DNA from: Chloroflexi bacterium HGW-Chloroflexi-10 | GTDB taxonomy: Bacteria; Chloroflexota; Anaerolineae; Anaerolineales; Anaerolineaceae | Length of the DNA: 64,000 nt | NCBI GenBank assembly: GCA_002840755.1 | Contig: PHBZ01000008.1 | Location: 1 to 64,000 of the forward strand | Direction: 5' to 3' | Part shown: positions 17,148 to 49,473 of the stretch, one piece after another | Layout: every line of letters starts with the position of its first letter | How positions within the stretch are numbered: position 1 is the stretch's first letter | The notes under the pieces: generated by a model | The model's database searches: none | Told to the model about the DNA's origin: nothing | Seen by the model: only the letters and a program-made list of their open reading frames with translations | Made by a program: the position numbers and the translations under genes

Positions 17148-17188
17148 AACCCTGCATTACAAAGTTTACATTGAAAGAGGTCGGCAAA

Positions 17189-17770
17189 ATGAAAAAAGAA
17201 TTGCGTGTTTTTATATTATTTTTATTCTGTGCCATCACGATCGCTCTGGGAATATCTATTTCATCAATTGTGGAAGCTTCGAATACTGCACCAACTTACA
17301 CCGAACTGTTATCCGAAATTGGCAATCCCCCGGCATCCTACTATTGGCAGATACAATCAGTCCCAACCTACGACACAACAGAAGCCCAGCAGGACTGGCG
17401 GAGTTCTTTTACCCTCTGTCACCCTCCAGGCGCCTTCAATAAATTGGCTCTTGCTAATGGTGCAGCCAACCAACCAACCACAGTTACGCTAAGTTGGGAA
17501 GCCGCCAGCGGAGCCACCTCCTATAAATACTGCTATGACTCTACAAACGACAACTCCTGTAATAACTGGAAATCCAACGGCACCAGCACCACTAAAACGA
17601 TCAGTGGGTTAAGCATAGAAACTACCTACTACTGGCATGTAAAAGCAATGAACGACGCCGATGGCACCTATACCTACGCAAACGGCAATTCCACAGCATT
17701 TTGGAGCTTTACCACTGAAGCGCAGCACTACGATGTATATCTGCCAATCATTCTTAAAAGTGCTCAATAA
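17189..17770 (+). CDS. Small secreted protein with one fibronectin-III-like module
   Basis: A protein of 193 residues with an N-terminal signal peptide (charged MKKELR then about 20 hydrophobic residues). A single fibronectin-III-like module spans about 75-178, with the signature YKYCYDSTNDNSCNNW, TTYYWHVKA and FWSFTT. The two cysteines probably form a disulphide. The last residues are YLPIILKSAQ. The ATG at 17189 has AGAGG 8 bases upstream and is preferred over the upstream TTG at 17171. The same module occurs six times in the 1182-residue protein at 45925-49473. Function unknown; an adhesive or carbohydrate-binding role is possible. Confidence 0.75.
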   Translation: MKKELRVFILFLFCAITIALGISISSIVEASNTAPTYTELLSEIGNPPASYYWQIQSVPTYDTTEAQQDWRSSFTLCHPPGAFNKLALANGAANQPTTVTLSWEAASGATSYKYCYDSTNDNSCNNWKSNGTSTTKTISGLSIETTYYWHVKAMNDADGTYTYANGNSTAFWSFTTEAQHYDVYLPIILKSAQ

Positions 17771-17878: not shown

Positions 17879-19963
17879 TCATTTCATCACGCGCGTCACG
17901 TTGGCAAAGTCCAGTTCCAGGCTGTGTTCATTATAGACTATGCGCAGCTTTTGACTATCAAATTCCATATTGGTGTAAGGGTTTTCCCAGCGTGGGTAAC
18001 CGTCCAAAGGTACCACAACCCCATCCAGGTTCAGATCACCATCCCAGTCAAATTGGAGCATGCCATTTCCTGGCGAGTCGAAACGAACTTGCAATCCCTT
18101 TACCTCCAATTTGGCGTTGCTGATACCCGCCACGAATTCTTCAAAACTGCCATCTACTGCGGCTCGCCCCACCTGACAAATCCACACATTTCGGCGGCCC
18201 AGGGCAATTACTTCCTGCTCGGCATCCACACCGCTGCTGGTCCACTGGTACGGTAAGTGCGAGTACAGCGCCACATAGCCCTCCCCCACCCGGCCAAAGA
18301 TCCAGCCGCCGCCCGATTCAGCCGCTGCTTCGCGTACTTCGTCAAATGCCCATTTAGGGAAATAAGCATGTGTGAAGGCGTAGTGCCGCGTTTCCAATGG
18401 TTTGGGGGCGCTGGGGTAACGATCGATATCATGCAGTGCAATCAGCACATTATCCACCTGTCCGCTGCGTGGCAGTCGTCCGTTGGACATCCAGTAACTG
18501 GGGCGTTGTTTGTCATCAGTACGCATGGAATCCGGATTGGTGGCAAACACCACAGCATAAGGGCTGAGCGTCGCCTGCCAGATATGCTGCTGGTAACCTT
18601 TCTCACCTTTGCGGAAATCCTGTGCCGAGGAAAGCATAGCATCCGGGGTGCGGTAGGTGACTTTGTTGACTTCGCTCATCAACATGCCATTGGTGTCCGG
18701 GTCTAGTAGCCGGCTGGCTAAAGGTAAAGCGTTGATTTTCTGTAATACTTTAGCAATCGATTTCAAATCTTTAAACTCATCATAATGCCACAGGTTCCAC
18801 ACATCCGCTGTGTGAATGGTATGGGCAATGATCTCCGGCTGGGTAAACGCTCCCATACCCCAGAAAAGCGGCATATCATTGACGTCATTGATATCCAGAC
18901 CATAGAGTGCAGCATCCGCAATTGGAAACGAGTCACGTTCATAGTTGCGGTAGACTTCCGGGTTATCCAACGCCAGCGCTTCAATCACCGGCGGAATCTG
19001 GTATTTGGGCGATGTGACCAATCCGATAACAGCCATATTGCCTGCAGAGGTGATCCGTCCCTGTCCCCATACCAGCGCATTTAATGTAGTCACCGTTCCG
19101 CCTGCAGTCTTGATCGAAGCAGGCGTCACCCGTCCATGCGAGGTGGCGAAATGCCCGTAAAAGGAATCAACGGCAATATCAAAGAGGATCACATCCACCA
19201 GCATGGTTGAGAGTGTGGCAATCTCCGTATCGTCAGCGAAATCAACCAGGTTGAATAGTGCTCCCAGATCTTCAGGGTAATAGGTTTCCGAGTCCCACTC
19301 GGCGAATCCGGTACGTGCACGTAGATCAATCCACTGGCGGATCAAACCCTCCGCGTGCTCCATGTGCCAGCGCCCGCTCTTCCCGTTATTGGTAAAAATT
19401 TCATCAGGAAAGAGCTGCCCGGCCAGGTATTCTATGCTGTGGTTAAGAATCTGATGATTCTCGGTCCACATTTGCACCAGGGTTGGGTTCGGTTCGTCCA
19501 ACCAATAGCACCAATTCAGGATGGCATCACGCAAGGCGGCTTCCTGTTCCGTGCTTAGCTTGCCGCTGCCCTGGTAGAGGTAATACAAACGGATCAGCGA
19601 GGTCATAGCGAAATCACTCGGATCTTCACGCTGGTTGACAAAATCGAGTGCGGCCTGCAAGGCAATCGGGTTGATGGATTGGGCGCCGGCAGCCAGCTTA
19701 CCAATATCTACCCAGACGCCGCCGCGGTCATCCGGCGTGGTTTGTTCCAGTATCCAATCAAAGTAGATCTGACGGCGTTCTGCAAACGTTGCGGCAATCG
19801 GTTCCTGTGCAAAGGGCACATCCCCTTCTGCCGGTCGTTTAGGATCCGGGTCACCTTCACGCAATGACGGTAACTGCGGTTTCACCGCTGCCATCTGGTC
19901 AAACACCACCCCGGCGATCAGCAAAACAACCACAACAATGATCCAGCCCCGTTTCTTTTTCAT
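17879..19963 (-). CDS. Membrane-anchored toroid-like protein, possible polysaccharide lyase (paralogue A)
   Basis: An uncharacterised protein of 694 residues. An N-terminal hydrophobic segment (7-22) after MKKKRG acts as signal or anchor, so the rest is outside the cytoplasm. Residues about 60-420 look all-helical and the C-terminal third looks beta-rich, as in alpha/alpha-toroid plus beta-sandwich lyases. Motifs shared with the neighbouring paralogue are WTENHQIL (Asn169-His170), YYPEDLGALFNLVDF (Tyr228, Tyr229), SHGR (His276, Arg278) and QQHIWQATLSPYAV. An Asn-His pair and a Tyr are the catalytic pattern of several uronate lyases, which suggests but does not prove this activity. The ribosome site GGAGG is strong and the start overlaps the previous stop by 4 bases. 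Confidence 0.75.
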   Translation of the reverse strand: MKKKRGWIIVVVVLLIAGVVFDQMAAVKPQLPSLREGDPDPKRPAEGDVPFAQEPIAATFAERRQIYFDWILEQTTPDDRGGVWVDIGKLAAGAQSINPIALQAALDFVNQREDPSDFAMTSLIRLYYLYQGSGKLSTEQEAALRDAILNWCYWLDEPNPTLVQMWTENHQILNHSIEYLAGQLFPDEIFTNNGKSGRWHMEHAEGLIRQWIDLRARTGFAEWDSETYYPEDLGALFNLVDFADDTEIATLSTMLVDVILFDIAVDSFYGHFATSHGRVTPASIKTAGGTVTTLNALVWGQGRITSAGNMAVIGLVTSPKYQIPPVIEALALDNPEVYRNYERDSFPIADAALYGLDINDVNDMPLFWGMGAFTQPEIIAHTIHTADVWNLWHYDEFKDLKSIAKVLQKINALPLASRLLDPDTNGMLMSEVNKVTYRTPDAMLSSAQDFRKGEKGYQQHIWQATLSPYAVVFATNPDSMRTDDKQRPSYWMSNGRLPRSGQVDNVLIALHDIDRYPSAPKPLETRHYAFTHAYFPKWAFDEVREAAAESGGGWIFGRVGEGYVALYSHLPYQWTSSGVDAEQEVIALGRRNVWICQVGRAAVDGSFEEFVAGISNAKLEVKGLQVRFDSPGNGMLQFDWDGDLNLDGVVVPLDGYPRWENPYTNMEFDSQKLRIVYNEHSLELDFANVTRVMK

Positions 19964-21930
19964 ATTGCTTCCTCCCGCAAATTAATTGTCCAATGATTAC
20001 CGCCGCATTGCACGTGCACCTGCTGTGGGTCAAAATCTGCCTGCACAAAGCGGCTGTCATAGCGCGGGTAATCGTGCAGCGGCATCACTTCACCATCCAC
20101 GCTCAAGGATCCACGCCAGCCAAAGCGCACTTCACCAATCGATGGTGAATGGTAATTAACCCGCATCCCGTCAAATTCCACCCTGGCCGCCACAACCTGC
20201 TCAATGAAATCTTCAAAGCTGCCAGACTCGCTTACGCTGCCCATCTGACATATCCAGATGTTGTTTGCGCCGGGAGCAATCAGTTCGTTCGTCCCCTGCC
20301 AGGCTGCTTTTTTCTGCGAGTATAATCCCAGGTAGCCATCTCCCTTGCGCGCAAAATACCATCCGCCAATTTCGTCGCTGACCTCGTCAAACGCGTCCCT
20401 CGGCAGCCATGCATGTGTGAAAAAATGGCGCGTGGGAACATACAAGGCCGGGATTTTCTCGATTTTGTAAACAATAATAGCCACGTTGCGGTATTGCGCA
20501 GCCCTTGGCAGCAGACCGGAACCGGTCCAGTAGTTGGGCGACGGTCCGTCAGTCTCCAGGTTAGCCGGGTGGGTCGTGAAACATACAGCATTCGCACCTA
20601 ATGTGGCCTGCCAGATATGTTGCTGGTCTCCCCCGTAGCCAGTACGGTAATCCTGCGCGGTGGAGAGCATGTAGTCCTGCGTTTTGTAGGTGTAAGTATT
20701 AACCTCTTCGCGTGTATTGCGGCACAGGTCGCGCTCGGCAAAGGCTGCCAGTATCGGCAATGTCCGGGTAGTTCGCAGCACATTAAGCAGCCGGCGGTAT
20801 TTTCGGAATGGCGCAAAGAACTCATTCTCCCACCAGTTATGCCGGTCAAATAGTTGCATCGTCGTTTGAATCAGCCGCGGATGCAGATAAGCCTCCAAGG
20901 TTAGCAGCAGCATGCCATCTTCCGGGTCTTTTGCATCCAGGTTCCATGTTTTCAAGTCCTTCATGCATATCCCCATGCGCTGGCGAATCTCCAATGCATC
21001 TTCCAGGACATCATGCGCAATCTCATAAATCACTTGCGGTATCTGATAGTTTTCGCTGAGCGCGAACTGCACGGCACTCATATTATCCCGCCGCGCAAAC
21101 ACGCCTACACCAAAAAGCAGCTTACCGGTATCCGTGGTGGTTTCATCCACCACCCAGCGTTTGCCATTGGCGTAACTGCGCCCATGTGTGCAACCATAAA
21201 CGCCTTTATAGGTTTGCAGCGCCATATCCAGCAGCAGTAAATGGATAATCTTCTTCGCTTGCTCTGAAATCTGACGCTCCGTACAAAAATCAACCAGGTT
21301 GAGCAGAGCTGTTAGATCTTCATCATAATACACATGTGAAAGCCACTCGCTGAAACCGCTGCGGAAGCGCAAATCCAGCCAGCGTAGAATGCGCCTGCGG
21401 ACAACTTCTATCTTCTGTTCCCCGCTTTGCCCGGAATTGGTGAACACCTCCCGCGGATACAACTGCCCTGCCAGAATTGCCCCCGTGCTGAAAAGGATCT
21501 GGTGATTCTCTGTCCAGGTGCACATCGAATCAACCCCGGGTTCATCCGGCCAATATTTGAATCCCAATACGCTTGCCTTTGCCCGCTCAAGCCAACCGTC
21601 AGGCATAAGTGGACTCGCGGCAAACTGGTACAGCAGCCGCAGCACGGCCTGCAAAACAAAATCAGCGCAGTCTTTGCGCGCATCCAGGTAATCCAGTGCG
21701 GCAAACAACACCCCGCTATGGGGTGTCTGTCCGCAGGCAAGCCGTGCCATCTCAGTATAGATCGCCTTAAAGTTCTCTTGCGCCGGGTTCTGGCAGATAT
21801 AGATTAAGAAGACGCTCTTGCGCTCCTCAAAGTTATCGGCAAAAGGCTCTTTACAGAACGTATCCGGGATGAATCTTTGCGGGTATCCCTGCGGGGGCGG
21901 GTAATGAAGCAGAAAACTGGTCTCTGGCAT
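19960..21930 (-). CDS. Cytoplasmic toroid-like protein, possible oligosaccharide-degrading enzyme (paralogue B)
   Basis: A protein of 656 residues, paralogous over its whole length to the membrane-anchored protein downstream but without a signal peptide, so probably cytoplasmic. Shared motifs are TWTENHQIL (Asn142-His143), YYDEDLTALLNLVDF (Tyr201, Tyr202), CTHGRS (His249, Arg251), QQHIWQATLGANAV and NNIWICQMG. The predicted layout is a helical toroid followed by a beta-sandwich. Together with the GPH symporter just upstream this suggests that extracellular fragments are imported and split further inside. The start at 21930 has only a weak ribosome site and lies 11 bases after the symporter stop. 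No known family could be assigned with confidence. Confidence 0.72.
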   Translation of the reverse strand: MPETSFLLHYPPPQGYPQRFIPDTFCKEPFADNFEERKSVFLIYICQNPAQENFKAIYTEMARLACGQTPHSGVLFAALDYLDARKDCADFVLQAVLRLLYQFAASPLMPDGWLERAKASVLGFKYWPDEPGVDSMCTWTENHQILFSTGAILAGQLYPREVFTNSGQSGEQKIEVVRRRILRWLDLRFRSGFSEWLSHVYYDEDLTALLNLVDFCTERQISEQAKKIIHLLLLDMALQTYKGVYGCTHGRSYANGKRWVVDETTTDTGKLLFGVGVFARRDNMSAVQFALSENYQIPQVIYEIAHDVLEDALEIRQRMGICMKDLKTWNLDAKDPEDGMLLLTLEAYLHPRLIQTTMQLFDRHNWWENEFFAPFRKYRRLLNVLRTTRTLPILAAFAERDLCRNTREEVNTYTYKTQDYMLSTAQDYRTGYGGDQQHIWQATLGANAVCFTTHPANLETDGPSPNYWTGSGLLPRAAQYRNVAIIVYKIEKIPALYVPTRHFFTHAWLPRDAFDEVSDEIGGWYFARKGDGYLGLYSQKKAAWQGTNELIAPGANNIWICQMGSVSESGSFEDFIEQVVAARVEFDGMRVNYHSPSIGEVRFGWRGSLSVDGEVMPLHDYPRYDSRFVQADFDPQQVHVQCGGNHWTINLREEAI

Positions 21931-21941
21931 GCGCGTTCAGT

Positions 21942-23390
21942 CTAACCTACCAGGTCACGCTTCAAATCGGCACGTTCTGCTTCCTGCTCGGGGGTCAATA
22001 CCGTGCCGGCCCGCACAAGTTTGAGGATCTGATTCAGGCGCGCATGTTTCTGCGGAGTCAGCGGGTAACGCCTTGCCAGCAGTGCCGAAGCGCCTACCAG
22101 AATCACCGGTAAAATGGCAAAGATCAGGCGGATGGTGGTGATGAACGACTCCGGTTGAGGTTGTTCAATCAGTTTTGTCGCTCCATTCACCACCTCTTGA
22201 AGCGGAGCTACATAACCCGAACGCGCTATCGCCTGCGAGACGAGGAATATGGCAAAGGCCGAGCTCATCTTGCGCATAAAGGTCACCATCGCCGAGTAGA
22301 TTCCCTCTCGGCGCTGTCCGGAGGCCAGTTCATCCACGTCCGGAATATCCGGGAAAATAGCGTACATAATAACAATCACGCCGCCTGTGCCAATTCCCAC
22401 CAGCGCTGCAAAGATATACACAAAAGCTGGCGCTTGCCCGGGAATCAGCAGCAGGCTGAAGAGCATCATCACTGCCCAGACAGTCGCGCCAATGGTAAAG
22501 GCTTTCTGTTTTCCCAGTTTTTTGCTGAGGAACACATACAACGGCAAAGCGATCACTTGCACCACCAGCAAAGTCCCGCTGACAAAACTGGACTCTGAGC
22601 CGCGCTGTAGATAGTATTTCATAAAATAAACAATCAGGCTGGAAACGGTATCAACCGCCACAAACGCCAGCAAATACATTAACAAGGCGCCAACAAAAGT
22701 CTTGTTCCGGAAAGGTTCAATAAAAGCAATCTTCCAGTCGAATTTTTCAGGCGGTTTCTGGAATTCCTTGCGTTCGCGGGTGGCGCTCACCGTGGCAATA
22801 AATGGTAGTGCAAAGAAAAGCCCAAAAACCAGCCCCATCACAATATATCCCTGGCGCACATCGGCAAAAGCTTTCACAATCTCAAGTGGCAGCAAAGCAG
22901 CCAGAATAGAGGATAGTGTGGAAAAGAGGATACGAATAGAACTGAGTGAGGTTCGTTCGTTGTAGTCCAGAGTCAGTTCGGAATGCAGGGCATTGTAATT
23001 CAGCATGACAATACTCACCGTGGTGGAGAAGAACAGGTAGGTGAGTAAAACAAACCAGAAACGCGAGATCTCGGCGTCAAAATCAACCGGATAGAACATG
23101 GCAAAAAAGGAGAAGAAAATCAGTGGGATACCGATCAGCAGATAAGGCCGCCGCCGCCCCAGGCGCGTCCGCGTACGGTCTGCGATGAGCCCTTCAAACG
23201 GGTCGGTAACCGAATCGTATATCTTGCTGATCAGAATAACAGTCCCTGCCAATGCCGGGCCAATGCGCACAATATCGGTAAGAAAATAAAGGTAATAAAA
23301 GCTGATCAGAGTACCAGAGCCGCCGCCAAAAATATCGCCAAGCCCATAACCAATTTTTTGCCACCAGGTAAGTTTTTCTGAATTTTCCAT
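21942..23390 (-). CDS. GPH-family sugar:cation symporter
   Basis: A transporter of 482 residues of the glycoside-pentoside-hexuronide family (MelB, UidB, XynB type), with 12 predicted transmembrane helices. The N-terminal signature contains YDSVTDPFEGLIADRTRTR followed by LGRRRPYLL, typical of the family, including the Asp residues used for Na+ or H+ coupling. It would import a mono- or oligosaccharide together with a cation. AGAGGAG lies 6 bases before the ATG. It sits between the Gfo/Idh/MocA dehydrogenase and the two toroid-like enzymes in a single operon. The C-terminus has a short charged extension (about 450-482). Confidence 0.9.
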   Translation of the reverse strand: MENSEKLTWWQKIGYGLGDIFGGGSGTLISFYYLYFLTDIVRIGPALAGTVILISKIYDSVTDPFEGLIADRTRTRLGRRRPYLLIGIPLIFFSFFAMFYPVDFDAEISRFWFVLLTYLFFSTTVSIVMLNYNALHSELTLDYNERTSLSSIRILFSTLSSILAALLPLEIVKAFADVRQGYIVMGLVFGLFFALPFIATVSATRERKEFQKPPEKFDWKIAFIEPFRNKTFVGALLMYLLAFVAVDTVSSLIVYFMKYYLQRGSESSFVSGTLLVVQVIALPLYVFLSKKLGKQKAFTIGATVWAVMMLFSLLLIPGQAPAFVYIFAALVGIGTGGVIVIMYAIFPDIPDVDELASGQRREGIYSAMVTFMRKMSSAFAIFLVSQAIARSGYVAPLQEVVNGATKLIEQPQPESFITTIRLIFAILPVILVGASALLARRYPLTPQKHARLNQILKLVRAGTVLTPEQEAERADLKRDLVG

Positions 23391-23415
23391 GATCTCCTCT
23401 TGTTGAATCGGGAAT

Positions 23416-24429
23416 TCAGGCGAACGCTTCTACAGCCTCACGCTGCCCGCTGCCAGACGAACGATAAATCGCTTCCACGGCGGCCAGTACCGGCACGGCG
23501 GAGGAGGCGGGAATTAGAAAAGGGGTATCTTCCAGCACCCAGGCCGCAAATCCAGCCAGGCTGCGCTGCAGCGCATGCACACCCAGCACAGGCAGGCGCT
23601 CTGTAATCCGCTTTGCTCCGATCAGTTTAATATGCGGAAAAGGGAAATTGCCGTAAATGGCCGTGCCAATACTGCCGTAAACCTCAATACTGACCGCCTG
23701 CTCTGTAGCAACTGCCATACTGCTGGCAATCTGCACCAAGGCACCGTTTTGCATGCGTACAATGCCATGCGCCAGGTCTTCCACCTCAACATCCTGAAAC
23801 TTGAAATGGCTGCTGTAACCTTGAGCAGATTCGGGTTGGTCGCCCAATCCCCACAGAACGATATCCAGAAAGTGGCTGCCCTGGGTGAGCAGTGTCCCTC
23901 CCCCGGCTTGTTCAATCGTCCGGTGCCAGGCAGATTGCTCAAAGTAACCGGATTGGCGTGCCCAGGGAATGTTGATACGCACACTGGATATTCTTCCAAC
24001 TACTCCGTGCTGCATCCAGCGCGCCAGGGTGTAACACGCATTGTCGTAGCGATACTGGTAATTAACACCTACCTTAACCCCGGCAGCCTCAATCAAGGGC
24101 ATCAGGCTGCGCGCTTCGGCCAGGGTACGCGTCAGCGGTTTTTCCACCAGCACCGGTATTCGTTTTTCAACGGCCAAGCGGATCATCTCATAATGCAGGT
24201 GATGTGGTACCGCCAGGTAAACCGCATCCAGACCGCTTTCGTGGATCATTTCGGCAAAATTATTGGATTGCCTGGGAATGCGATGTTTGCGGGCAAATCT
24301 GGCACTGCGCACCGGGTCCACATCACAGCAGGCCGCCAAATGTACAGCCGGCACCAGGCGGCTGACCAGCGCCATAAATCCGGCAATATCACCACAGCCC
24401 GCTATACCCAATCTTAATTTACGACCCAT
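23416..24429 (-). CDS. Gfo/Idh/MocA-family NAD(P)-dependent oxidoreductase
   Basis: An oxidoreductase of 337 residues. A Rossmann fold starts [14 protein letters not shown], the hallmark VEKPLTRT contains the family's catalytic Lys (residue 97), and a C-terminal alpha/beta domain follows. The frame is open for another 36 codons upstream, but the ATG at 24429 has GGAAGG in front and gives the normal Gfo/Idh/MocA N-terminus; it overlaps the thuA-like gene by 16 bases. These enzymes oxidise sugars or sugar acids, often at C3. The pairing with a ThuA-like gene resembles the ThuA/ThuB pair of disaccharide catabolism through 3-keto sugars. Confidence 0.9.
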   Translation of the reverse strand: MGRKLRLGIAGCGDIAGFMALVSRLVPAVHLAACCDVDPVRSARFARKHRIPRQSNNFAEMIHESGLDAVYLAVPHHLHYEMIRLAVEKRIPVLVEKPLTRTLAEARSLMPLIEAAGVKVGVNYQYRYDNACYTLARWMQHGVVGRISSVRINIPWARQSGYFEQSAWHRTIEQAGGGTLLTQGSHFLDIVLWGLGDQPESAQGYSSHFKFQDVEVEDLAHGIVRMQNGALVQIASSMAVATEQAVSIEVYGSIGTAIYGNFPFPHIKLIGAKRITERLPVLGVHALQRSLAGFAAWVLEDTPFLIPASSAVPVLAAVEAIYRSSGSGQREAVEAFA

Positions 24430-25028
24430 CGCAAACCTTCCACTATCACCTCTCGATAAGCCGGGTTCGTCATTGTCGCACTGCGGTGTCCGGGGCAAGC
24501 ATAACACACCCGCCCTTCGCCATATCCCCGTGTCCACACCACCGGCACAGGCTTATTGTTGTATATACTTTCAAATTGTACCTGGACGTCGGCCCGCATG
24601 TCGTGCAGATAAAGTTCATCAGTCACTGTAAAAGCGCCAACCTGTGCAAAAGCCGGCTCCACCTGGGCAGTCGGTGTAAGCGTAAAAGACTGCACGGGTC
24701 CATGCCCGCTAAACTGCCCGCCGATAATTTCAAAATAATGCGCAGATGTCTTAAACGAAGCTGTGGCCGAATGCACCCCCAGCAAGCCGCCTCCCTCGCC
24801 AACAAATTTATCCAGTCTGCTCAGCGCTTCTGCGGAAAGGGTCTGCTGATGCACATATAAGACTAACGCAGCTACACTGGAAAGATCCATGCTGGTGAGG
24901 GATTCCAGAGAATGCGCCTGTACAAGCTGCCACTGCCTCTGAGAAGCGATTAATCGCGCTAGGCTCAGTCGTCCCAGCCAGGGCGGATGAAAAAAAGCGG
25001 CATTGACGTACACAATTTTGTTCTTCAA
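24414..25028 (-). CDS. ThuA-like domain protein
   Basis: A protein of 204 residues with the glutamine-amidotransferase-like fold of the ThuA family. Visible features are the central [17 protein letters not shown] with its strand-turn, the ELYLHDM segment, and [17 protein letters not shown] near the C-terminus. ThuA proteins act in trehalose and sucrose breakdown through 3-keto sugars together with a Gfo/Idh/MocA partner, which is encoded next here. The start overlaps the upstream oxidoreductase stop by 4 bases. Confidence 0.85.
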
Positions 25029-26446
25029 ATCTTCAATCCTTTCAATTCCCTGGCTTCGGGTCGCGTTTTATAAAAAGCATCCAGCGGGTAACAACCGGAA
25101 ACCAATCCATTACGTGGTGCTGTTGTACAATCACTAAAGGTGCGGCAAATCTGTTTTCGATCCAGTTCTTTACCGGCTAGCACATCGGCACAAAATCTGG
25201 GATAAGAGAGCATCATCCGTCCCAGACCCACAAAATCGACCTGACCGGTACGCACCATTCTCTGTGCCACAAACGGCAGCCATTCCTGTAGATACGAGTA
25301 GCCTGTACCCGCAATAATAAGCTCTGGAAACTCCGCTTTAAGTTGCGCGGTTATGTTAATCATGCGTGCTGCCCCCGCCAGCGGATCTTCCGGCGGTCGG
25401 TAACCATCCGAAGGCGGGAAAAGCGCCGGACGCTGAATATGCGGAACATAATATGGGCTGCCGGCGGTAATATTCACCAAGCGGATGCCTAAAGCTTCAA
25501 GCATGGTCAATAATTGTCTCGGCTCACTCAGATCTATTCCTGTTCCACTGCCGTCACCGCCAAAGGCGTAGGGGTATGTGCCCTCATATTCCAATGGCTC
25601 CCCGACGCTCTCAAACCCGGGTCGGAAAGGAATAAAATCAAACACTGAAAGACGCACGCCAATCTCCAAACCGGGTGCATCTCGTCGGATACCGGCCACT
25701 ATTTCCCGCAGGTATCGCGTACGATTCTCCAGACTGCCGCCATACGGTCCTGAACGGGTGACTGCACTAAGGAATTCATGACCCAGGTAACCGTGGCAAT
25801 GTTTGATATCTACAAAATTAAAACCAGCCTGTTGAGCCAGAATCGCAGCACGCACCGTTTCACCGATAATGTCACCAATCTCTCCGTCACTCAATATAGG
25901 GAAATCCATCGGCAGTCCAAAACGAGGGTTAAGCAATGGGTGTGGGTAAAGAATTTGCGGTTTTAGACGTTTGGGTTCATCCGGGCGGCAAAAACGTCCG
26001 GAATGAGTTAATTGCAACCCTACCAGCAAATCATGGGTAGAGGAATGCATTGCGTGTGCCGCAATTAAATCCATGCGCAAACCGGCAATCGTTTTGGCAT
26101 TCTCTGCGTTCAGCAGAAGTTGGTTCGGGTTAGCGCGCGCCGCCGGGTTTACGGCTACAGCCTCACCTCCCCATATCAGCTTGGCGCTGCTGCGTCCGAA
26201 GTTCACCCAGCGCCGCCGTGTCAGCTCGGAAGGTTTCCCGTCCGGATGGGCATCCCAGCCTTCCATCGGTAATACACAGAAGCGGTTGCCAATCCAGCCA
26301 TTCTTCCAGGGGTAGGGCTGTGCCAGCGGAGCGCCTTCTCCACAGAGGAGTTCTTCATCAAATTCCAGGTTTATTCCCTGGTTATCCAGATAATTCCGGA
26401 AATCCTCGGCACTGCGCAGTTGTGCAATTTTTTTGATCGGTTTCAT
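25025..26446 (-). CDS. NADH:flavin oxidoreductase (Old Yellow Enzyme family)
   Basis: A TIM-barrel FMN enzyme of 473 residues. Family hallmarks are QLTHSGRF, the pair [10 protein letters not shown], and [16 protein letters not shown], followed by the phosphate-binding [14 protein letters not shown] near the C-terminus. A short Cys-containing tail ([14 protein letters not shown]) is unlike the Fe-S and NAD-binding extension of 2,4-dienoyl-CoA reductases, so this is the short form with an extended N-terminus. It probably reduces or dehydrogenates an activated C=C or keto intermediate of the pathway. The start overlaps the aldolase stop by 4 bases. Confidence 0.88.
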
Positions 26447-27390
26447 AAGCTTTCCAATTGTTCTAAAATTAGTGCCAATACGGCCACATCGCTGGTTGGA
26501 CGGCGGGCGGCTTGCGCATGCGGGTTGGAGCAGGTCAACCAGCCACGCAGCTTGAGAAACTGGGCAGCACTGTGTTTATAGGCGCTCACCGGTGCCCTAA
26601 AAGCGAACTGTCCCAAATATTGCAGCAGATCATTTAACGCATAGAATCGCACATCACCCTGCGCCCAATACTCATCCCGTTTGGCAAAATAATCCGGGGC
26701 AAAGGTAGAAAGCCCCAGCAGGTAATCACAGCCATACATGATCATATCAATCGCCAGGTCATTACCGGTGTAAAGTTTAAATTCCGGTCGTATCTCATCC
26801 CGCACAGCCAGCCGCTGCCACTCCAGGTTGCGCTGTAAAGAAGAATGTTTCATCCCGATCATCTGCGGAATCTGCATCAGTTCACGCACCAGTTCCAGCT
26901 CATAGATCATTCCATTTGGTGCAAACATCCGCCCCAATTCAAAGCCCAAAAAGGCATCACAACCGCTAGCTACCTGCCGGTAACAGGCAAGAATCTCATC
27001 AGCAGTGAACCGTTGAAAACGGGATGTCTGAAACACAATCGGCAGTCCGCCAAAACGCTGGATATTCTCCACTTCGCTGGCATACAAAGCCGCCGGGTCA
27101 CCAGGCAGCTTTTCAATAAAAGCCCCGGCAACGAAACGCTGTCCGGCGGTCACGGCCTGGGTAATCTCCAATACCAGGCGGCGCTGATCTACACTCAACA
27201 AATTGGTGTAACCGGTATCCATGTTCACAGCCGGGGTCAGGCCGGCAAGGCAGGTACGCTCAATATGCGCGGCCAATCCCTTTAAATCCATTTCGCCGTT
27301 CTCCTGAAAGGGCAGCAGAATAGCTGAGATACCCTCCGGCTTGCGGCGGTAGGTTACACGCGCGCCAAGCGTTTCGGTTGTGAGTTTCAT
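26443..27390 (-). CDS. DapA/NanA-superfamily aldolase-like protein without the usual tyrosine
   Basis: A TIM-barrel class I aldolase-like protein of 315 residues. The Schiff-base Lys is visible as Lys181 in MIGMKHSS. In DapA and related lyases a tyrosine lies in a motif like VLYNVP about 30 residues after strand 4; here the equivalent stretch reads [10 protein letters not shown], with Phe120 in its place and no NxP. The substrate loop is therefore different and a retro-aldol or dehydratase activity on a sugar acid is uncertain. It lies in the middle of the overlapping operon, between gntR and the flavin oxidoreductase (4-base overlaps on both sides). Confidence 0.82.
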
Positions 27391-28055
27391 ATCGTTTCTT
27401 CCTTTAACAATCTCCGGTAATTCTCATGCGCATGCCGGTTATGCGTCCCCGTCAAAATAACCAATCGGTCAATCTCCCCGCTGCGCAGATAGGATAGCAT
27501 CTCGCGGTGTTCCGCCTGTGCCTGAAGCATGCGTTCAGAAGCAACCCGCGGAAAATAACAATGACTCAAGCGTTCCCACTCATCCAGCGTACGGTTGGTA
27601 AATTCCATCAACAATGGCATACCGCTCATCTCGGCAATTTTTCGGTGAAAACGGATATTGCCGGTTAACCACCCCTCGGCATCCCCCTGTTGCGCAGCCG
27701 CATCCATACTGCCAATCAGCGTGGCCAGTGCATCCAGATCAGCCGCATGGGCTGCACCGGCCGTCAACCGCAGCGCCACCTGCTCCAAAGCGGCCAGCAG
27801 CGCAAAAATCTCATCCACCTTTTCAGGTGGCAATTCGGCCACCACTGCCCCACTGTGCGGTGTGATCACCACCAGTCCTTCCGCCTGCAAACGCTGCATC
27901 GCCGAACGAATAGGAATCTGACTGATCCCCAAATCAACAGAAAGCCGGTCAATCACCAACTTATCACCCGGCTTTAAATCACAATGAATAATGGCTTTGC
28001 GCAAAGCCTGGTAAGCATATTCTTCTTTGGTTTGAAAAGTCTGCGAAGTTTCCAT
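27387..28055 (-). CDS. GntR-family regulator with FCD domain
   Basis: A transcription factor of 222 residues. The winged helix-turn-helix covers about 10-75 (YAYQALRKAIIHCDLKPGDK, LGISQIPIRSAMQRLQAEGL). It is followed by an all-helical FCD ligand-binding domain with the metal or ligand histidines in the HRKIAEMSG and HREML regions. FCD regulators usually respond to acidic sugars or small carboxylates. It is the first gene of the eight-gene minus-strand operon and has a perfect palindrome 12 bases upstream of its ATG, so it most likely represses its own operon. Confidence 0.9.
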   Translation of the reverse strand: METSQTFQTKEEYAYQALRKAIIHCDLKPGDKLVIDRLSVDLGISQIPIRSAMQRLQAEGLVVITPHSGAVVAELPPEKVDEIFALLAALEQVALRLTAGAAHAADLDALATLIGSMDAAAQQGDAEGWLTGNIRFHRKIAEMSGMPLLMEFTNRTLDEWERLSHCYFPRVASERMLQAQAEHREMLSYLRSGEIDRLVILTGTHNRHAHENYRRLLKEETI

Positions 28056-45924: not shown

Positions 45925-48900
45925 TTACTTGAAAATAAGTGGGAAGTAACTAAAGTTAAAATCGTCAGGCGAATTAACCAATGTAGTAAAACTCCAAAAA
46001 GCAGTACCCCTGCCATTCGAATAGGTTGTGCCGCCGTCATTCACGGCGCGGACGTGCCAATAGTAGGTGGTTCCGGCACTCAGCCCACTGAGTACTTGGG
46101 AAGTGTCGGTTCCATTGGAAGTCCAATTGCTGCAAGCATCGTCGTTGCTGGTGTCGTAACAATACTCGTAAGACACGCCGCCAAAACTGCTGCTCCAGCG
46201 CAATGTTGGGTTGGTAGATTGACCGGTTACACCATTGCTGGGAGCTGATTTATTAAAGGCGGCTGGGGGGGCAATAACAGTGGTGAAACGCCAGAATGCA
46301 GTACCACTGCCATTCGAATAGATTGGTCCATCACTATTAATAGCCCGGACATGCCAGTAGTAAGTGGTTCCGGTACTCAACCCACTGAGTACTTGGGAAG
46401 TGTTGGTTCCATTGGAAGTCCAAGTGCTACAGGCATTGTCGTTGCTGGTGTCGTAACAATATTCGTAAGATATAGCGCCATAACTGGTACCCCAACTCAA
46501 CTCGGGACTGGTGGATTGGCCGACCGCGCTGTTACCGGGAGCCGATTTATTAAAGTCGGCAGGCGGATTGACCAATGTAGTAAAACTCCAAAAAGCAGTA
46601 TCATTGCCATTCGAATAGGTTGTGCCGCCGGCATTCACAGCGCGGACGTGCCAATAGTAGGTAGTTACGGCACTCAACCCATTGAGTTCTTTGGTGGCGT
46701 TGGTTCCATTGGAAGTCCAAGTGCTGCAAGTATCGTCGTTGCTCGTGTCGTAACAATATTCGTAAGACACGGCGCCAAAACTGGTAGCCCAGCTCAGCAC
46801 AGGATTGGTGGATTGGTCGACCGCACTGTTACCGGGAGTCGATTTACTAAAGTCGGCAGGCGGATTGATCAATGTAGTAAAACTCCAAAAAGCAGCACTA
46901 TTGCCATTCGAATAGGTGGTGCCGCCGTCATTTACGGCACGGATGTGCCAATAATAGGTGGTTCCGGCACTCAACCCAATGAGTACTTTGGAAGTGTTGG
47001 TTCCATTGGAAGTCCAATTGCTGCAAGCATCGTCGTTGCTCGTGTCGTAACAATATTCGTAAGACACGGCGCCGGAACTGCTGCCCCAACGCAATGTTGG
47101 GTTGGGAGATTGACCGGTTACGCCATTACTGGGAGCCGATTTATTAAAGGCGGCTGGGGGGGCAACAGCAATAGTGAAACTCCAGAATGCAGTACCACTG
47201 CTATTCGAATAGGTTGTGCCGCCGGCATTCACGGCGCGGATGTGCCAGTAATACGTGGTTCCGGCACTCAACCCACTGAGTACTTTGGAAGTGTTGGTTC
47301 CATTGGATGCCCAATTGCTGCAGGCATTATCGTTGCTCGTGTCGTAACAATATTCGTAATATGCGGCGCCGGAACTGCTGCTCCAATTCAATGTGAGACT
47401 GGTGGATTGGCCGGTTACGCCATTACCGGGAGCCGATTTATTAAAGGCGGCTGGGGGGGCAACAGCAGTAGTGAATCTCCAAAAAGCAGTACTATTGCCA
47501 TTCGAATAGATTGTTCCTTCACTATTTATAGCCCGGACATGCCAGTAGTACGTGGTTCCAGTACTCAACCCACTGAGTATTTTGGAAGTGTTGGTTCCAT
47601 TGGAAGTCCAATTGCTGCAGGCATTATCATTGCTCGTGTCATAGCAATATTGGTAAGATGTAGCGCCAGAACTGGTACCCCAGCTCAGCACAGGACTGGT
47701 GGATTGGCCGGTTGCTTCGTTAGCGGGAACGGTTTTGTTAAAATACTCCGATTCCTCCACTGTGATAAAAATCCAATCCGTTTGTGAAATTCCATGTTCA
47801 TCAGTGACAGTGCAGGAAACCAGATAATGACCTTCTCGGGCATAATTATGCGTCTCATTGGAGTTGATCTGACCATCGCCATAATTGTACAGATAAGTCA
47901 GGTCGTCCCCGTCGGCATCATAAGTTGTCACAGAAATTGTAACTTCCATCCCGTTATATGAAACAGAGTCAATAGAAACTCTTGGGGCATAGTTACTTGA
48001 GGAACCATTATCGTACAAATATTTCAAAAGCCAATATGCATCGGCATCCATCTGGTCCTGGACACGCCTCATTTCCTCACCGACAATGTTAACGACGCCA
48101 TCATCTGGCCAATCCCGGTTGCGCCAATCCGGAAGCAGCGTATAGTTCACCACATCAAACAAGTGTTCTTCAAATGGCAAGGTGCGGGCCTGGACGTTCG
48201 CTTCATTGTAGCCTTCATTGTGCATGCCTTTGGCTGGGGTGTAAACACATTTACCGTCATCACCCTTATTGAGATATTGTGGCACCTGATTCGTTCCGCC
48301 GGATTCTACGCCATGAAGCCACACAGGCACAAAAATGCCGGTTTCGGTGTGCCCCAACAACACCCACATTGTCGATAGTCTTGGATCTTCATAAGGCAGC
48401 ACACCCTGAACGATCATATTGGATACAGTATTGTCTATGGCTAACCCATCCCGGCGAAAGAAACTAACTGCCAGGTGTTTCGCCGAAAGAGCAGTGCCAT
48501 TTCCATTATTGTAAATCAAGGATCCTATTACATCTCGCCCAACATTGTAGCGATCAGTGATCCAAAGATCATCAGTACCATCATTATTAAAATGACCAGG
48601 TGCGTTGGCTCGCACTACCCATCCGGAAAGAGATACATCCGTGCCGGTCGCGTAATTGCCATCACCATCCGCATTATCACCATCGATCCACTGATTGTTC
48701 CGGGCTGGCGCACGAGTATTGTACTCCCAATGCTGATCCAACCCAGTTTGGCTCTCCCATAAGACAGCCTCTCCATCAACATCGATAAAATTGTTATGCG
48801 TTGAAAGATTCGTCATCTCATTCAGGAACTCTCGTACCTGGTTTACGGTGCTGTAGTATCCCAACGCTTGATGGTTAAGCAATTGCCAACCGCTGCTATC

Positions 48901-49473
48901 AAGCACATTCCATCCAACAGCCAGCCCTTGGGAATTCAGACCCTGACGAACCGACTCATCGGGAGAATCATTCGCAGGTCCCATTCCCAGGAAACTATAC
49001 TCGGTCAGGCCTAGCCCTGAATAATATTCAACACCTGAGATAAAATATTTTAAATCATTTGTCTCGTCAATCTCATTGCGTAGTTTCCACAGCAAAGGTC
49101 GGCCATCGACAGTGACGTCGCCATCGGCAACACCAGCGACACACTCATCGGCATATGATTTTTCTGAAAATGCTTGTCCAAACTCTGGCGTGGTGGATTC
49201 CCCGCTTGAAAAGTCAATAGCAGCGGTTTTGCTTGGTTGGGATATCCATTCCTGACCATACTCAAAATCGGCATTCAAGTCTCTCCCTGCAGGATAATTT
49301 GCTATAAATAACCAGCCAGTGGGATTATCCAACATTTCTGTTAAAGTTATGGATGATGTGTAACACACACACAAATTCAACATTGCCACGGATACCAACG
49401 CCATAGCTAGTTTAACAAAAGAACCCCCATTTTCTTTTCTCTTCCAAGCCATTCTTCCACTATTAGTTGCCAT
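45925..49473 (-). CDS. Secreted Ntn-hydrolase-like protein with PKD domain and six fibronectin-III-like repeats
   Basis: A protein of 1182 residues. The signal peptide covers about 1-41. The N-terminal domain (about 45-500) resembles Ntn-type Cys hydrolases (C45/C69 group), with Cys111 in YADECVAGVADGDVTVDGRP as the likely self-exposed nucleophile. A PKD-like domain follows at about 505-575 (YNYGDGQINSNETHNY). Next come six modules of exactly 99 residues, each with the signature YCYDTSND.ACSNW and YYWH(V/I)RA. The C-terminus is SYFPLIFK. Such an enzyme could cleave an amide or peptide bond outside the cell, with the repeats as spacer or binding modules. No upstream ribosome site is strong. 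Confidence 0.7.
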   Translation of the reverse strand: MATNSGRMAWKRKENGGSFVKLAMALVSVAMLNLCVCYTSSITLTEMLDNPTGWLFIANYPAGRDLNADFEYGQEWISQPSKTAAIDFSSGESTTPEFGQAFSEKSYADECVAGVADGDVTVDGRPLLWKLRNEIDETNDLKYFISGVEYYSGLGLTEYSFLGMGPANDSPDESVRQGLNSQGLAVGWNVLDSSGWQLLNHQALGYYSTVNQVREFLNEMTNLSTHNNFIDVDGEAVLWESQTGLDQHWEYNTRAPARNNQWIDGDNADGDGNYATGTDVSLSGWVVRANAPGHFNNDGTDDLWITDRYNVGRDVIGSLIYNNGNGTALSAKHLAVSFFRRDGLAIDNTVSNMIVQGVLPYEDPRLSTMWVLLGHTETGIFVPVWLHGVESGGTNQVPQYLNKGDDGKCVYTPAKGMHNEGYNEANVQARTLPFEEHLFDVVNYTLLPDWRNRDWPDDGVVNIVGEEMRRVQDQMDADAYWLLKYLYDNGSSSNYAPRVSIDSVSYNGMEVTISVTTYDADGDDLTYLYNYGDGQINSNETHNYAREGHYLVSCTVTDEHGISQTDWIFITVEESEYFNKTVPANEATGQSTSPVLSWGTSSGATSYQYCYDTSNDNACSNWTSNGTNTSKILSGLSTGTTYYWHVRAINSEGTIYSNGNSTAFWRFTTAVAPPAAFNKSAPGNGVTGQSTSLTLNWSSSSGAAYYEYCYDTSNDNACSNWASNGTNTSKVLSGLSAGTTYYWHIRAVNAGGTTYSNSSGTAFWSFTIAVAPPAAFNKSAPSNGVTGQSPNPTLRWGSSSGAVSYEYCYDTSNDDACSNWTSNGTNTSKVLIGLSAGTTYYWHIRAVNDGGTTYSNGNSAAFWSFTTLINPPADFSKSTPGNSAVDQSTNPVLSWATSFGAVSYEYCYDTSNDDTCSTWTSNGTNATKELNGLSAVTTYYWHVRAVNAGGTTYSNGNDTAFWSFTTLVNPPADFNKSAPGNSAVGQSTSPELSWGTSYGAISYEYCYDTSNDNACSTWTSNGTNTSQVLSGLSTGTTYYWHVRAINSDGPIYSNGSGTAFWRFTTVIAPPAAFNKSAPSNGVTGQSTNPTLRWSSSFGGVSYEYCYDTSNDDACSNWTSNGTDTSQVLSGLSAGTTYYWHVRAVNDGGTTYSNGRGTAFWSFTTLVNSPDDFNFSYFPLIFK
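45958..47739 (-). repeat. Six tandem 297-bp repeats encoding fibronectin-III-like modules
   Basis: Equivalent codons (the Asn of FNKSAP or its match) lie at 47737, 47440, 47143, 46846 (Ser), 46549 and 46252, and the phase ends at 45955. Every step is exactly 297 bases, with no insertion or deletion. The high DNA similarity and constant length indicate recent duplication or ongoing conversion. Confidence 0.85.

What the first reader, a model, noticed from the sequence alone, without database searches (positions are those of the whole stretch)
17879..21930. Pair of paralogous toroid-like enzymes, one exported and one cytoplasmic, with a lyase-like Asn-His/Tyr pattern
Both proteins share TENHQIL, a YY.EDL..L.NLVDF block, HGR and QQHIWQATL, so these residues are likely functional. 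Asn-His plus Tyr in a helical toroid is the catalytic pattern of uronate lyases such as PL5 and PL17. The export/cytoplasm split fits an endo-enzyme and an exo-enzyme. They may be a new carbohydrate-active family.
Basis: partly seen in the sequence, partly recalled or inferred. Interest (0 to 1): 0.7.

Follow-up and report, generated by a model that had tools for sequence, protein, structure and literature searches.

The report
Unnamed sugar-acid-cutting lyase family, paired
Two neighbouring bacterial genes encode distant relatives of the enzymes that cut uronic-acid sugar chains by elimination; they belong to a widespread family that the databases searched here leave unnamed, and some relatives sit beside, or are fused to, the enzyme that processes such cut chains.

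Summary
In detail: two paralogues (36% identical) share every quoted motif; A (17879-19963, -) starts with a hydrophobic export/anchor segment, B (19960-21930, -) does not. Neither matches Pfam, NCBIfam or (A, and the family profile) a PDB sequence. AlphaFold models are confident (B pTM 0.95, A 0.91). All nine (B) and twenty (A) Foldseek hits at E<=0.001 are alpha/alpha-toroid lyases.

Asn-His, then Tyr 59 residues on (53-57 in PL12/33/35/17), an Arg and a Gln are kept in 41-43 of 45 rows; Asn, His, Tyr and Gln are lost together in three. The joint pattern NH-x11-G ... G-x5-S-x2-Y occurs in 33 of 45 family rows and 26 of 30 Hepar_II_III proteins, in 0 of 1328 control ORFs (chosen post hoc). 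Distant relatives lie in clusters with GH88, kduI, kduD; 12 of 30 copies in one order lie within 5 kb of GH88 (0.5 expected); one is fused to GH88.

Against: A and B's own locus has no GH88 and sits with symporter/Gfo/ThuA genes; profile comparison is not significant; the beta-sheet His seems replaced by Gln. Substrate unknown, endo/exo untested. Best reading: a new beta-eliminating uronate-lyase family; epimerase or 3-keto-glycoside eliminase not excluded.

The parts
19960..21930 (-). B: cytoplasmic toroid lyase-like protein, 656 aa
   Evidence: ORF; AF2 pLDDT 95.2, pTM 0.95; Foldseek/VIA hits to toroid lyases; 47-55% identical to the homologues of loci L001-L020
17879..19963 (-). A: paralogue with N-terminal hydrophobic export/anchor segment, 694 aa
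   Evidence: ORF; AF2 pLDDT 89.0, pTM 0.91; Foldseek/VIA; different clade from B
19901..19945 (-). A residues 7-21, hydrophobic segment (signal anchor or signal peptide)
   Evidence: hydropathy 3.31; modelled as helix 5-21 with low confidence
19454..19459 (-). A N169-H170: proposed carboxylate neutraliser (Asn) and base/charge partner (His)
   Evidence: each in 42 of 45 rows; comparison with PL12/17/33/35
19277..19309 (-). A G219-Y229 (GFAEWDSETYY), proposed catalytic Tyr228
   Evidence: Y228 in 42, E222 in 43, S225 in 44 of 45 rows; G-x5-S-x2-Y shared with Hepar_II_III proteins
19130..19138 (-). A HGR 276-278, conserved Arg278
   Evidence: 43 of 45 rows
18584..18592 (-). A Q458-Q459-H460; Gln458 at the proposed place of the beta-sheet catalytic His of other toroid lyases (inferred)
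   Evidence: Q458 41 of 45, H460 25 of 45
18368..18370 (-). A His532, invariant; probably structural because kept in degenerate members too
   Evidence: 45 of 45 rows
21502..21507 (-). B N142-H143
   Evidence: aligned to A N169-H170
21325..21357 (-). B G192-Y202 (GFSEWLSHVYY), proposed catalytic Tyr201
21178..21186 (-). B HGR 249-251
20617..20625 (-). B Q436-Q437-H438
21942..23390 (-). GPH-type sugar/uronide cation symporter (MFS_2)
   Evidence: PF13347 268 bits; TIGR00792 over cut-off; homologue before the family gene in 9 of 20 loci L001-L020
23416..24537 (-). Gfo/Idh/MocA oxidoreductase (true start probably the ATG near 24432)
   Evidence: PF01408, PF22725
24414..25028 (-). ThuA-like protein
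   Evidence: PF06283 114.8 bits
25025..26446 (-). Old-yellow-enzyme-like flavin oxidoreductase
   Evidence: PF00724 77.8 bits
26443..27390 (-). DapA/NAL-superfamily aldolase-like protein
   Evidence: PF00701 29.4 bits
27387..28055 (-). GntR regulator of the FCD subfamily, first gene of the presumed operon
   Evidence: PF07729, PF00392; 4-base overlaps GntR-DapA, DapA-OYE, OYE-ThuA

Best explanation
A and B are two members, from different subfamilies, of a family that the libraries used here do not name: toroid polysaccharide/oligosaccharide lyases, distantly related to heparinase II/III-type enzymes. They bind a uronic-acid chain between the alpha/alpha toroid and the beta-sheet domain, neutralise the uronate carboxylate with Asn169/Asn142 (helped by His170/His143 and perhaps Arg278/Arg251), take the C5 proton and protonate the leaving O4 through Tyr228/Tyr201 (with His170 or Gln458 as partner), and leave a 4,5-unsaturated uronide. 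In the window, A would act outside at the membrane, the GPH symporter would import the fragments, and B would finish them inside. Shown here: paralogy, predicted fold, conservation, gene order. Inferred: chemistry, residue roles, the A-then-B division of labour, substrate.
For: Models of both proteins are confident, and all 9 (B) and all 20 (A) PDB hits at E<=0.001 are toroid lyases. Of the 50 VIA rows shown for B, 46 are lyases matched over about 370-440 residues; the rest are dermatan sulfate epimerase, two unsaturated-uronyl hydrolases (3ani, 2gh4) and the PL27 toroid. Asn, His, Tyr are kept in 42 of 45 rows, Arg in 43, Gln in 41; the three rows without Asn, His and Tyr also lack the Gln, and two of them the Arg. 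Asn to Tyr is 58-59 residues in 36 of 36 against 53 (PL33), 54 (PL35, PL12), 57 (PL17). NH-x11-G followed by G-x5-S-x2-Y at 48-62 residues: 33 of 45 family rows, 26 of 30 Hepar_II_III proteins, 0 of 1328 other ORFs, 0 of 3750 shuffled copies (pattern chosen after seeing it). Distant relatives lie in gene clusters with GH88 and kduI (kduD in three of the four) or GH88 and GH28; 12 of 30 copies in the order of a Lachnospiraceae genome have GH88 within 5 kb, all on the same strand, 0.51 expected; a 1161-aa natural protein joins the family domain to GH88. The host genome itself has, on another contig, ABC permease genes, GH4, GH88, GH28, PfkB kinase, KDPG aldolase, IolB and KduD in a row, so it can probably use unsaturated uronides.
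Against: No profile link to a known lyase family: no Pfam/NCBIfam hit, no PDB sequence hit; hhalign with 30 Hepar_II_III proteins stays far from significance (probability 0.5-2%, E 0.11 to 0.025). The substitution-score test of the G-x8-Y window showed no signal. VIA Z (10.8 and 10.5 at best) is above the 7-8 usual for models without a match but below the 13 the tool gives as possible for mostly helical models; rmsd 5-8 A, 6-12% identity, Foldseek TM 0.18-0.35. The beta-sheet His of other toroid lyases has no conserved counterpart at the matching place. 15 of the 20 genomes of L001-L020 have no GH88 match; the window operon has none, and the host's GH88 cluster is on another contig and holds neither A nor B, so the GH88 argument does not reach A and B directly.
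Confidence: 0.72

Rival explanations
1. Uronyl C5-epimerase: same fold and active site, proton taken from C5 and returned to the other face without cleavage.
For: Human dermatan sulfate epimerase 6hzn is the top VIA row for B (Z 10.8, rmsd 6.3, 449 aligned), and the PL33 authors note a catalytic apparatus shared with the epimerase (passages).
Against: Rows 2 and 3, within Z 1 of it, are lyases (tied); it is rank 6 (Z 9.0) for A and is not among Foldseek's hits at E<=0.001. GH88, kduI and kduD neighbours and the GH88 fusion in relatives fit cleavage, not epimerisation.
Confidence: 0.07
2. 3-keto-glycoside eliminase in the B clade: Gfo/Idh oxidises C3 of a glycoside, and B (and A) eliminate the aglycone using the keto group, not a carboxylate, as activator; ThuA and the flavoprotein handle the products.
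For: Homologues of the symporter, Gfo and ThuA in 9, 8 and 7 of 20 loci L001-L020; GH88 mostly absent from those genomes.
Against: The putative carboxylate-binding Asn-His and Arg are unchanged between this clade and the GH88-linked copies. L002 carries a KDG-kinase-like gene after the family gene, with a homologue in L003.
Confidence: 0.09
3. Glycoside hydrolase with an alpha/alpha toroid that uses the conserved Glu168/Glu222 as acid/base.
For: E168 and E222 are kept in 43 of 45 rows. For A, several toroid-only enzymes (GH105 4ce7 Z 9.3, alpha-1,6-mannanase 7nl5 Z 9.2, cellobiose 2-epimerases 7d5g 9.0 and 4z4l 8.8) score as high as most lyases.
Against: Those align only about 220-240 residues; the matches over about 370-450 residues are lyases or dermatan sulfate epimerase, and Foldseek's hits at E<=0.001 are all lyases. 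GH88 is a separate, additional domain in the natural fusion.
Confidence: 0.08
4. Carbohydrate-binding or regulatory protein without catalysis.
For: Three Chloroflexota relatives (L089, L090, L091) have lost Asn, His, Tyr and Gln together, so non-catalytic members probably exist.
Against: A and B keep every one of these residues.
Confidence: 0.04

Closest known systems
PL17 oligoalginate lyases (Alg17c 4nei/4ojz; Vibrio VaAly17A/B tandem pair)
   Same: Two-domain toroid + beta-sheet fold (Foldseek 4.5e-6 for A; VIA Z 9.4 for B); Asn then Tyr 57 residues on; a tandem pair that divides substrates by size is described in Vibrio (abstract and passages).
   Different: 7-12% identity; no conserved His at the H413 place; no PL17 PDB sequence matched by the family profile; Tyr490 as possible Y450 counterpart is only inferred.
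PL33 lyases (BT4410, hyaluronan-active, 8r70)
   Same: Foldseek 1.6e-5 for A and 2.7e-4 for B; N238, Y291, H444 apparatus, Asn-Tyr spacing 53 (passages).
   Different: 8-10% identity; H444, invariant in PL33, has no conserved counterpart; the metal site was not tested.
PL35 GAGases (GAGase II and VII, 8khv, 8khw)
   Same: 8khw is the top Foldseek row for B (6.6e-5) and has VIA Z 10.4; Asn192/Tyr246 spacing 54 (passages).
   Different: 7-10% identity; Mn site and His401 not matched.
Heparinase II/III-type proteins (Hepar_II_III; PL12 heparinase III)
   Same: NH-x11-G-x3-P stretch and G-x5-S-x2-Y in the same order, Asn-Tyr 50-54 against 58-59; heparinase III NH windows score above all 233 control NH windows.
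   Different: Gln in place of the HAQPD His; no PF07940 match for A or B; hhalign not significant.
Dermatan sulfate epimerase (6hzn)
   Same: Fold over 449 residues, Z 10.8 for B.
   Different: Genomic context of relatives points to cleavage.

Membership tests
Hepar_II_III superfamily (Pfam PF07940/PF16889; PL12, PL15, PL17, PL21) | Match to the Pfam models | tested here: not met
   No Pfam family at E<=1 for A or B; neither model among the 15 families matched by any of the 36 members
Hepar_II_III superfamily (Pfam PF07940/PF16889; PL12, PL15, PL17, PL21) | Profile-profile similarity | tested here: not met
   hhalign with 30 Hepar_II_III proteins: probability 0.7% for alignment A3 and 2.0% for the 45-row set, E 0.078 and 0.025 (first run, with 3 of 30 proteins taken from the wrong strand, 0.5% and 0.11). 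The aligned stretch does contain the NH motif in register
Hepar_II_III superfamily (Pfam PF07940/PF16889; PL12, PL15, PL17, PL21) | NH-x11-G and G-x5-S-x2-Y motifs in order | tested here: met
   33 of 45 family rows, 26 of 30 Hepar_II_III proteins, 0 of 1328 controls, 0 of 3750 shuffles; pattern set up from these data, so post hoc
Toroid + antiparallel beta-sheet lyases (PL8/12/15/17/21/33/35/39 fold group) | Two-domain fold | tested here: met
   (predicted models; moderate Z, best 10.8)
Toroid + antiparallel beta-sheet lyases (PL8/12/15/17/21/33/35/39 fold group) | Asn (or Asn-His) followed by catalytic Tyr about 53-57 residues later | tested here: met
   Asn-Tyr 58-59 in 36 of 36 (counted there from His: 57-58); 42 of 45 rows keep Asn, 42 keep Tyr; reference residues from papers
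Toroid + antiparallel beta-sheet lyases (PL8/12/15/17/21/33/35/39 fold group) | Conserved His from the beta-sheet domain near the Tyr | tested here: inconclusive
   At the place matched by sequence order the conserved residue is Gln458 (41 of 45); His532 is invariant but kept in degenerate members, and its place in the model was not measured
Toroid + antiparallel beta-sheet lyases (PL8/12/15/17/21/33/35/39 fold group) | Unsaturated uronide as product | not testable with these tools
   Needs enzyme assay; context of distant relatives agrees
PL17, PL33, PL35 individually | CAZy family profile (dbCAN) | not testable with these tools
   No CAZy/dbCAN library held; no PDB sequence matched at E<=10 by phmmer of A or by the family profile
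GH88/GH105 unsaturated uronyl hydrolases | PF07470 match | tested here: not met
   No Pfam family for A or B
Uronyl C5-epimerase (dermatan sulfate epimerase) | Fold similarity | tested here: met
   6hzn Z 10.8 for B, 9.0 for A, tied with lyases
Uronyl C5-epimerase (dermatan sulfate epimerase) | Epimerase activity | not testable with these tools
   Needs assay

The most novel reading that the evidence does not exclude
In the Chloroflexota/Spirochaetota clade the toroid lyase apparatus has been re-used on 3-keto-glycosides made by the neighbouring Gfo/Idh dehydrogenase, so that a lyase fold known for uronate beta-elimination (carboxylate activation at C5) works with keto activation at C3; ThuA and the flavin enzyme then handle the keto product.
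Probability: 0.08. Interest if true: 0.8.

Novelty: new variant of a known kind. Interest (0 to 1): 0.58.

Why it matters
Copies were found in Chloroflexota, Spirochaetota, Myxococcota, Hydrogenedentota, Poribacteria, Bacillota, Actinomycetota, Alphaproteobacteria and haloarchaea, yet no Pfam or NCBIfam model covers A or B, and every annotated copy among the plasmid rows listed is a 'hypothetical protein' (20, 30 and 40 of 199 records shown). If it is a uronate lyase family, it supplies the missing cutting step in GH88/kduI/kduD clusters, including those on plasmids of root-nodule rhizobia, and shows a toroid lyase that seems to manage without the usual beta-sheet histidine. One absorbance assay would test it.

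Tried and rejected
Considered and rejected: recent duplication of A and B (they fall in different clades, B in a 100/100 clade of 19 rows). QQHIWQATL His as catalytic (only 25 of 45 rows). His532 as the missing beta-sheet base: invariant in 45 of 45 including the three rows without Asn/His/Tyr, so more likely structural; not settled. PL27/PL42 as relatives: what I remembered of PL27 did not fit the paper I looked up (passages, a beta-propeller lyase); BACCELL_00875, named PL27 there, appears only as a toroid-only match. PL26 rhamnogalacturonan exolyase: considered from memory because of protein length in rhizobia; not in the listings, not excluded. Family-wide split by compartment: only A, L010, L017 and L018 have clear N-terminal hydrophobic segments among 44 rows (start codons of several rows are uncertain and one row is cut at a contig end).

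Led nowhere or corrected: hhalign to Hepar_II_III proteins is not significant. In one search my script took 3 of the 30 proteins (L062, L072, L078) from the wrong strand; redid it. The strict regex, which demanded E-x-S and used that faulty set, found 3 of 30; with a looser pattern that needs no Glu it is 28 of 30 and 26 of 30 for the joint pattern. Substitution-score test of the G-x8-Y window: no signal. The first NH-window control still held family members and was redone with 55 family ORFs removed: heparinase III windows then beat all 233 controls, two Chloroflexota heparinase-like windows were equalled or beaten by 4 and 8 controls. Paper searches for the family or for new lyase families gave nothing on it, and on keto-glycoside pathways nothing useful; no wider claim of absence from print is made. 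S. chiapasense and NGR234 records have no usable gene table there; Pfam scans of further neighbours in loci L001-L020 gave no shared substrate clue.

Limits of the GH88 count: the 30 family places were merged by hand from the rows, which include the centre genome G473 itself; the GH88 list typed into one search left out 12 weak rows (nine below the cut-off, three over it), none within 5 kb of a family place; G574, G674, G816 and G743 look like near relatives, so the 12 places are not independent; the expected value uses rounded genome sizes. The order is unnamed in the tool; it is the order of a genome titled Lachnospiraceae.

Full report
What is there. On the minus strand from 28055 down to 17879 lies a tightly packed run of genes: GntR/FCD regulator, DapA/NAL-superfamily aldolase-like, old-yellow-enzyme-like flavoprotein, ThuA-like, Gfo/Idh/MocA, GPH-type symporter, B, A. 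Four of the joints are 4-base overlaps, B-A included. A alone has an N-terminal hydrophobic segment.

No known sequence family. Neither protein matches any Pfam or NCBIfam model at E<=1. phmmer of A and a profile of 36 homologues find no PDB sequence at E<=10. Scanning the 36 homologues gave 15 Pfam families, each matched by one member only; the strong ones (PhoPQ_related, PKD, BACON) are domain types that I take to be N-terminal additions of the longest proteins, the others weak (which does not name the member).

Distribution. One scan of genome contigs gave 31 loci; plasmid records add rhizobia, Pseudosulfitobacter, Pannonibacter, Gemmobacter, Shinella, Haladaptatus and Subdoligranulum (199 records). 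It is patchy: 4 of 61 relatives of the host and 5 of 400 genomes of its phylum, the host included in both, and 22 of 392 genomes of the order of a Lachnospiraceae locus. In the tree of 44 rows B sits in a 100/100 clade of 19 rows with other Chloroflexota, Spirochaetota, Myxococcota, Hydrogenedentota and Poribacteria copies, next to L014 (96/95), while A groups, with moderate support (90/82), with a haloarchaeal copy and two copies of the host's phylum, one of them a long branch of unsure place. The pair is therefore not a recent duplication. Two divergent copies in one locus recur in L015, L022, L030 and L088.

Fold. AlphaFold2 with 33 aligned sequences gives pLDDT 95.2/pTM 0.95 for B and 89.0/0.91 for A: mostly helices to about residue 400 of B, then a beta domain. 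Foldseek hits at E<=0.001 number 9 for B and 20 for A, all toroid lyases (PL17, PL33, PL35, PL15, PL12, one hyaluronate lyase), with low TM-scores of 0.18-0.35. VIA gives best Z 10.8 (dermatan sulfate epimerase), 10.6 (chondroitinase 9o3q) and 10.4 (GAGase VII) for B over 386-449 residues, and 10.5 for A (9o3q). The tool warns that Z up to about 13 can mean only a common arrangement in mostly helical models, and for A toroid-only hydrolases and epimerases score nearly as high, so the two-domain span and the Foldseek list carry more weight than Z.

Active site. In 45 aligned rows Asn169 42, His170 42, Glu222 43, Ser225 44, Tyr228 42, Arg278 43, Gln458 41, His532 45. The three rows that lack Asn, His and Tyr (L089, L090, L091) also have R, S or T at Gln458, and two lack Arg278. 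That joint loss marks these residues as one functional set and His532 as probably structural. Papers (passages read) give Asn/Tyr pairs 240/294 (PL12), 192/246 (PL35), 201/258 (PL17), 238/291 (PL33) with a beta-sheet His (424, 401, 413, 444) (PMC12088678; PMC11848413). In A the pair is 169/228. Thirty Hepar_II_III proteins from the host's kin, taken on the right strand, show NH and a G...Y motif, Asn to Tyr 50-54, in 28 of 30. The joint pattern NH-x11-G plus G-x5-S-x2-Y at 48-62 residues occurs in 33 of 45 family rows and 26 of 30 of these proteins, in 0 of 1328 other ORFs of the fetched loci and 0 of 3750 shuffled copies. The pattern was set up after seeing both, but the controls are clean. 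Profile comparison in the same stretch aligns the NH motifs yet stays at 0.7-2% probability. The beta-sheet His has no conserved counterpart in the matching stretch; Gln458 stands there. That mapping is by order and motif, not by coordinates.

Context in relatives. Four alphaproteobacterial copies lie directly beside kduI with a GH88 gene in the same cluster (on the other strand in Pseudosulfitobacter), three with kduD too: Pseudosulfitobacter, Gemmobacter, Shinella, and without kduD Pannonibacter. Two Rhizobium copies precede GH88 and GH28. Two Bacillota loci (L028, L029) share genes for rhamnosidase GH78, a galactarate/altronate dehydratase-type enzyme and tagaturonate reductase (the reductase of L029 is over its cut-off, the dehydratase under). 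In the order sample 12 of 30 copies (11 of 22 genomes) have GH88 within 5 kb, all same strand, against 0.51 expected; 18 of 30 do not. One genome has a single 1161-aa reading frame with the family domain followed by GH88 at 834-1159, 302 bits. GH88/GH105 enzymes act on 4,5-unsaturated uronides made by lyases, and KduI/KduD on the sugar released (established knowledge). This is the strongest functional evidence, but it comes from distant relatives: those in the alignment are 21-29% identical to A.

The window's own clade and genome. Of 20 loci L001-L020 (18 placed in B's clade by the tree, L008 and L019 by identity) nine hold a symporter homologue, eight a Gfo, seven a ThuA (several contigs are short). 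Only 5 of their 20 genomes match GH88 at all, two of those weakly. L002 has a KDG-kinase-like gene after the family gene (467 bits to a KDPG-aldolase/kinase fusion model, under its cut-off) and L003 its homologue, which suits a lyase that releases monomers. The host genome has one GH88 match, on another contig, in a row with two ABC permease genes, an unmatched 555-aa ORF, GH4, GH28, PfkB, KDPG aldolase, IolB and KduD (KduD, aldolase and IolB over cut-off). That resembles the clusters in which the rhizobial family members sit, but here it contains none: A and B are the only copies found in the genome. So the host can probably use unsaturated uronides; whether A and B feed that route is open. 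The DapA-like protein could be a KDG aldolase, which is only a guess (29 bits to DHDPS).

Reading. The most likely function is beta-elimination of uronic-acid chains, A outside and B inside, with import between; a tandem pair of PL17 lyases that divide substrates by size is known in Vibrio (PMC12336832, abstract and passages). Substrate is not determined. Filing under a named PL family is not justified: the profile tests fail. It works like PL12/17/33/35 and shares two motifs with heparinase II/III-type proteins; it is not shown to be a member.

Noticed in passing
window 17879-28055: The gene run has 52.5% GC against 44.4% for the rest of the window, with GC3 of 0.49-0.60 against 0.34-0.38 in the four genes just before it, which suggests horizontal acquisition.
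   Followed up: partly
L106:4040-7525 (-): Natural 1161-aa fusion of an N-terminal part, the family domain and GH88, next to what by eye looks like a GH31 protein.
   Followed up: yes
L089:6716-9271, L090:7320-9773, L091:7352-10051: Three long-form homologues of the host's phylum with Asn, His, Tyr and Gln of the active site all replaced: possible non-catalytic partners.
   Followed up: partly
L036, L083, L088, L089, L106 N-termini: Long forms carry about 275-390 residues before the family domain; in the three scanned singly with Pfam (L088, L089, L106) no domain is found there.
   Followed up: no
window 17171-17770 (+) and 45925-49473 (-): Two exported-looking ORFs share the same fibronectin-III-like repeat; the second has about six copies behind another domain. 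Seen by eye; fn3 is weak for the first.
   Followed up: no
host genome C81:30000-41190 (L113, L092): Pectin/uronate-type cluster: ABC permeases, GH4, GH88, GH28, PfkB, KDPG aldolase, IolB-type isomerase and KduD in a row.
   Followed up: partly
61 genomes of the host's kin: 54 of 61 carry a Hepar_II_III protein, mostly one copy, perhaps a polysaccharide-assembly lyase.
   Followed up: no
L014:11139-13760: GH9 cellulase with CBM9 directly after the B orthologue in a genus-mate.
   Followed up: no
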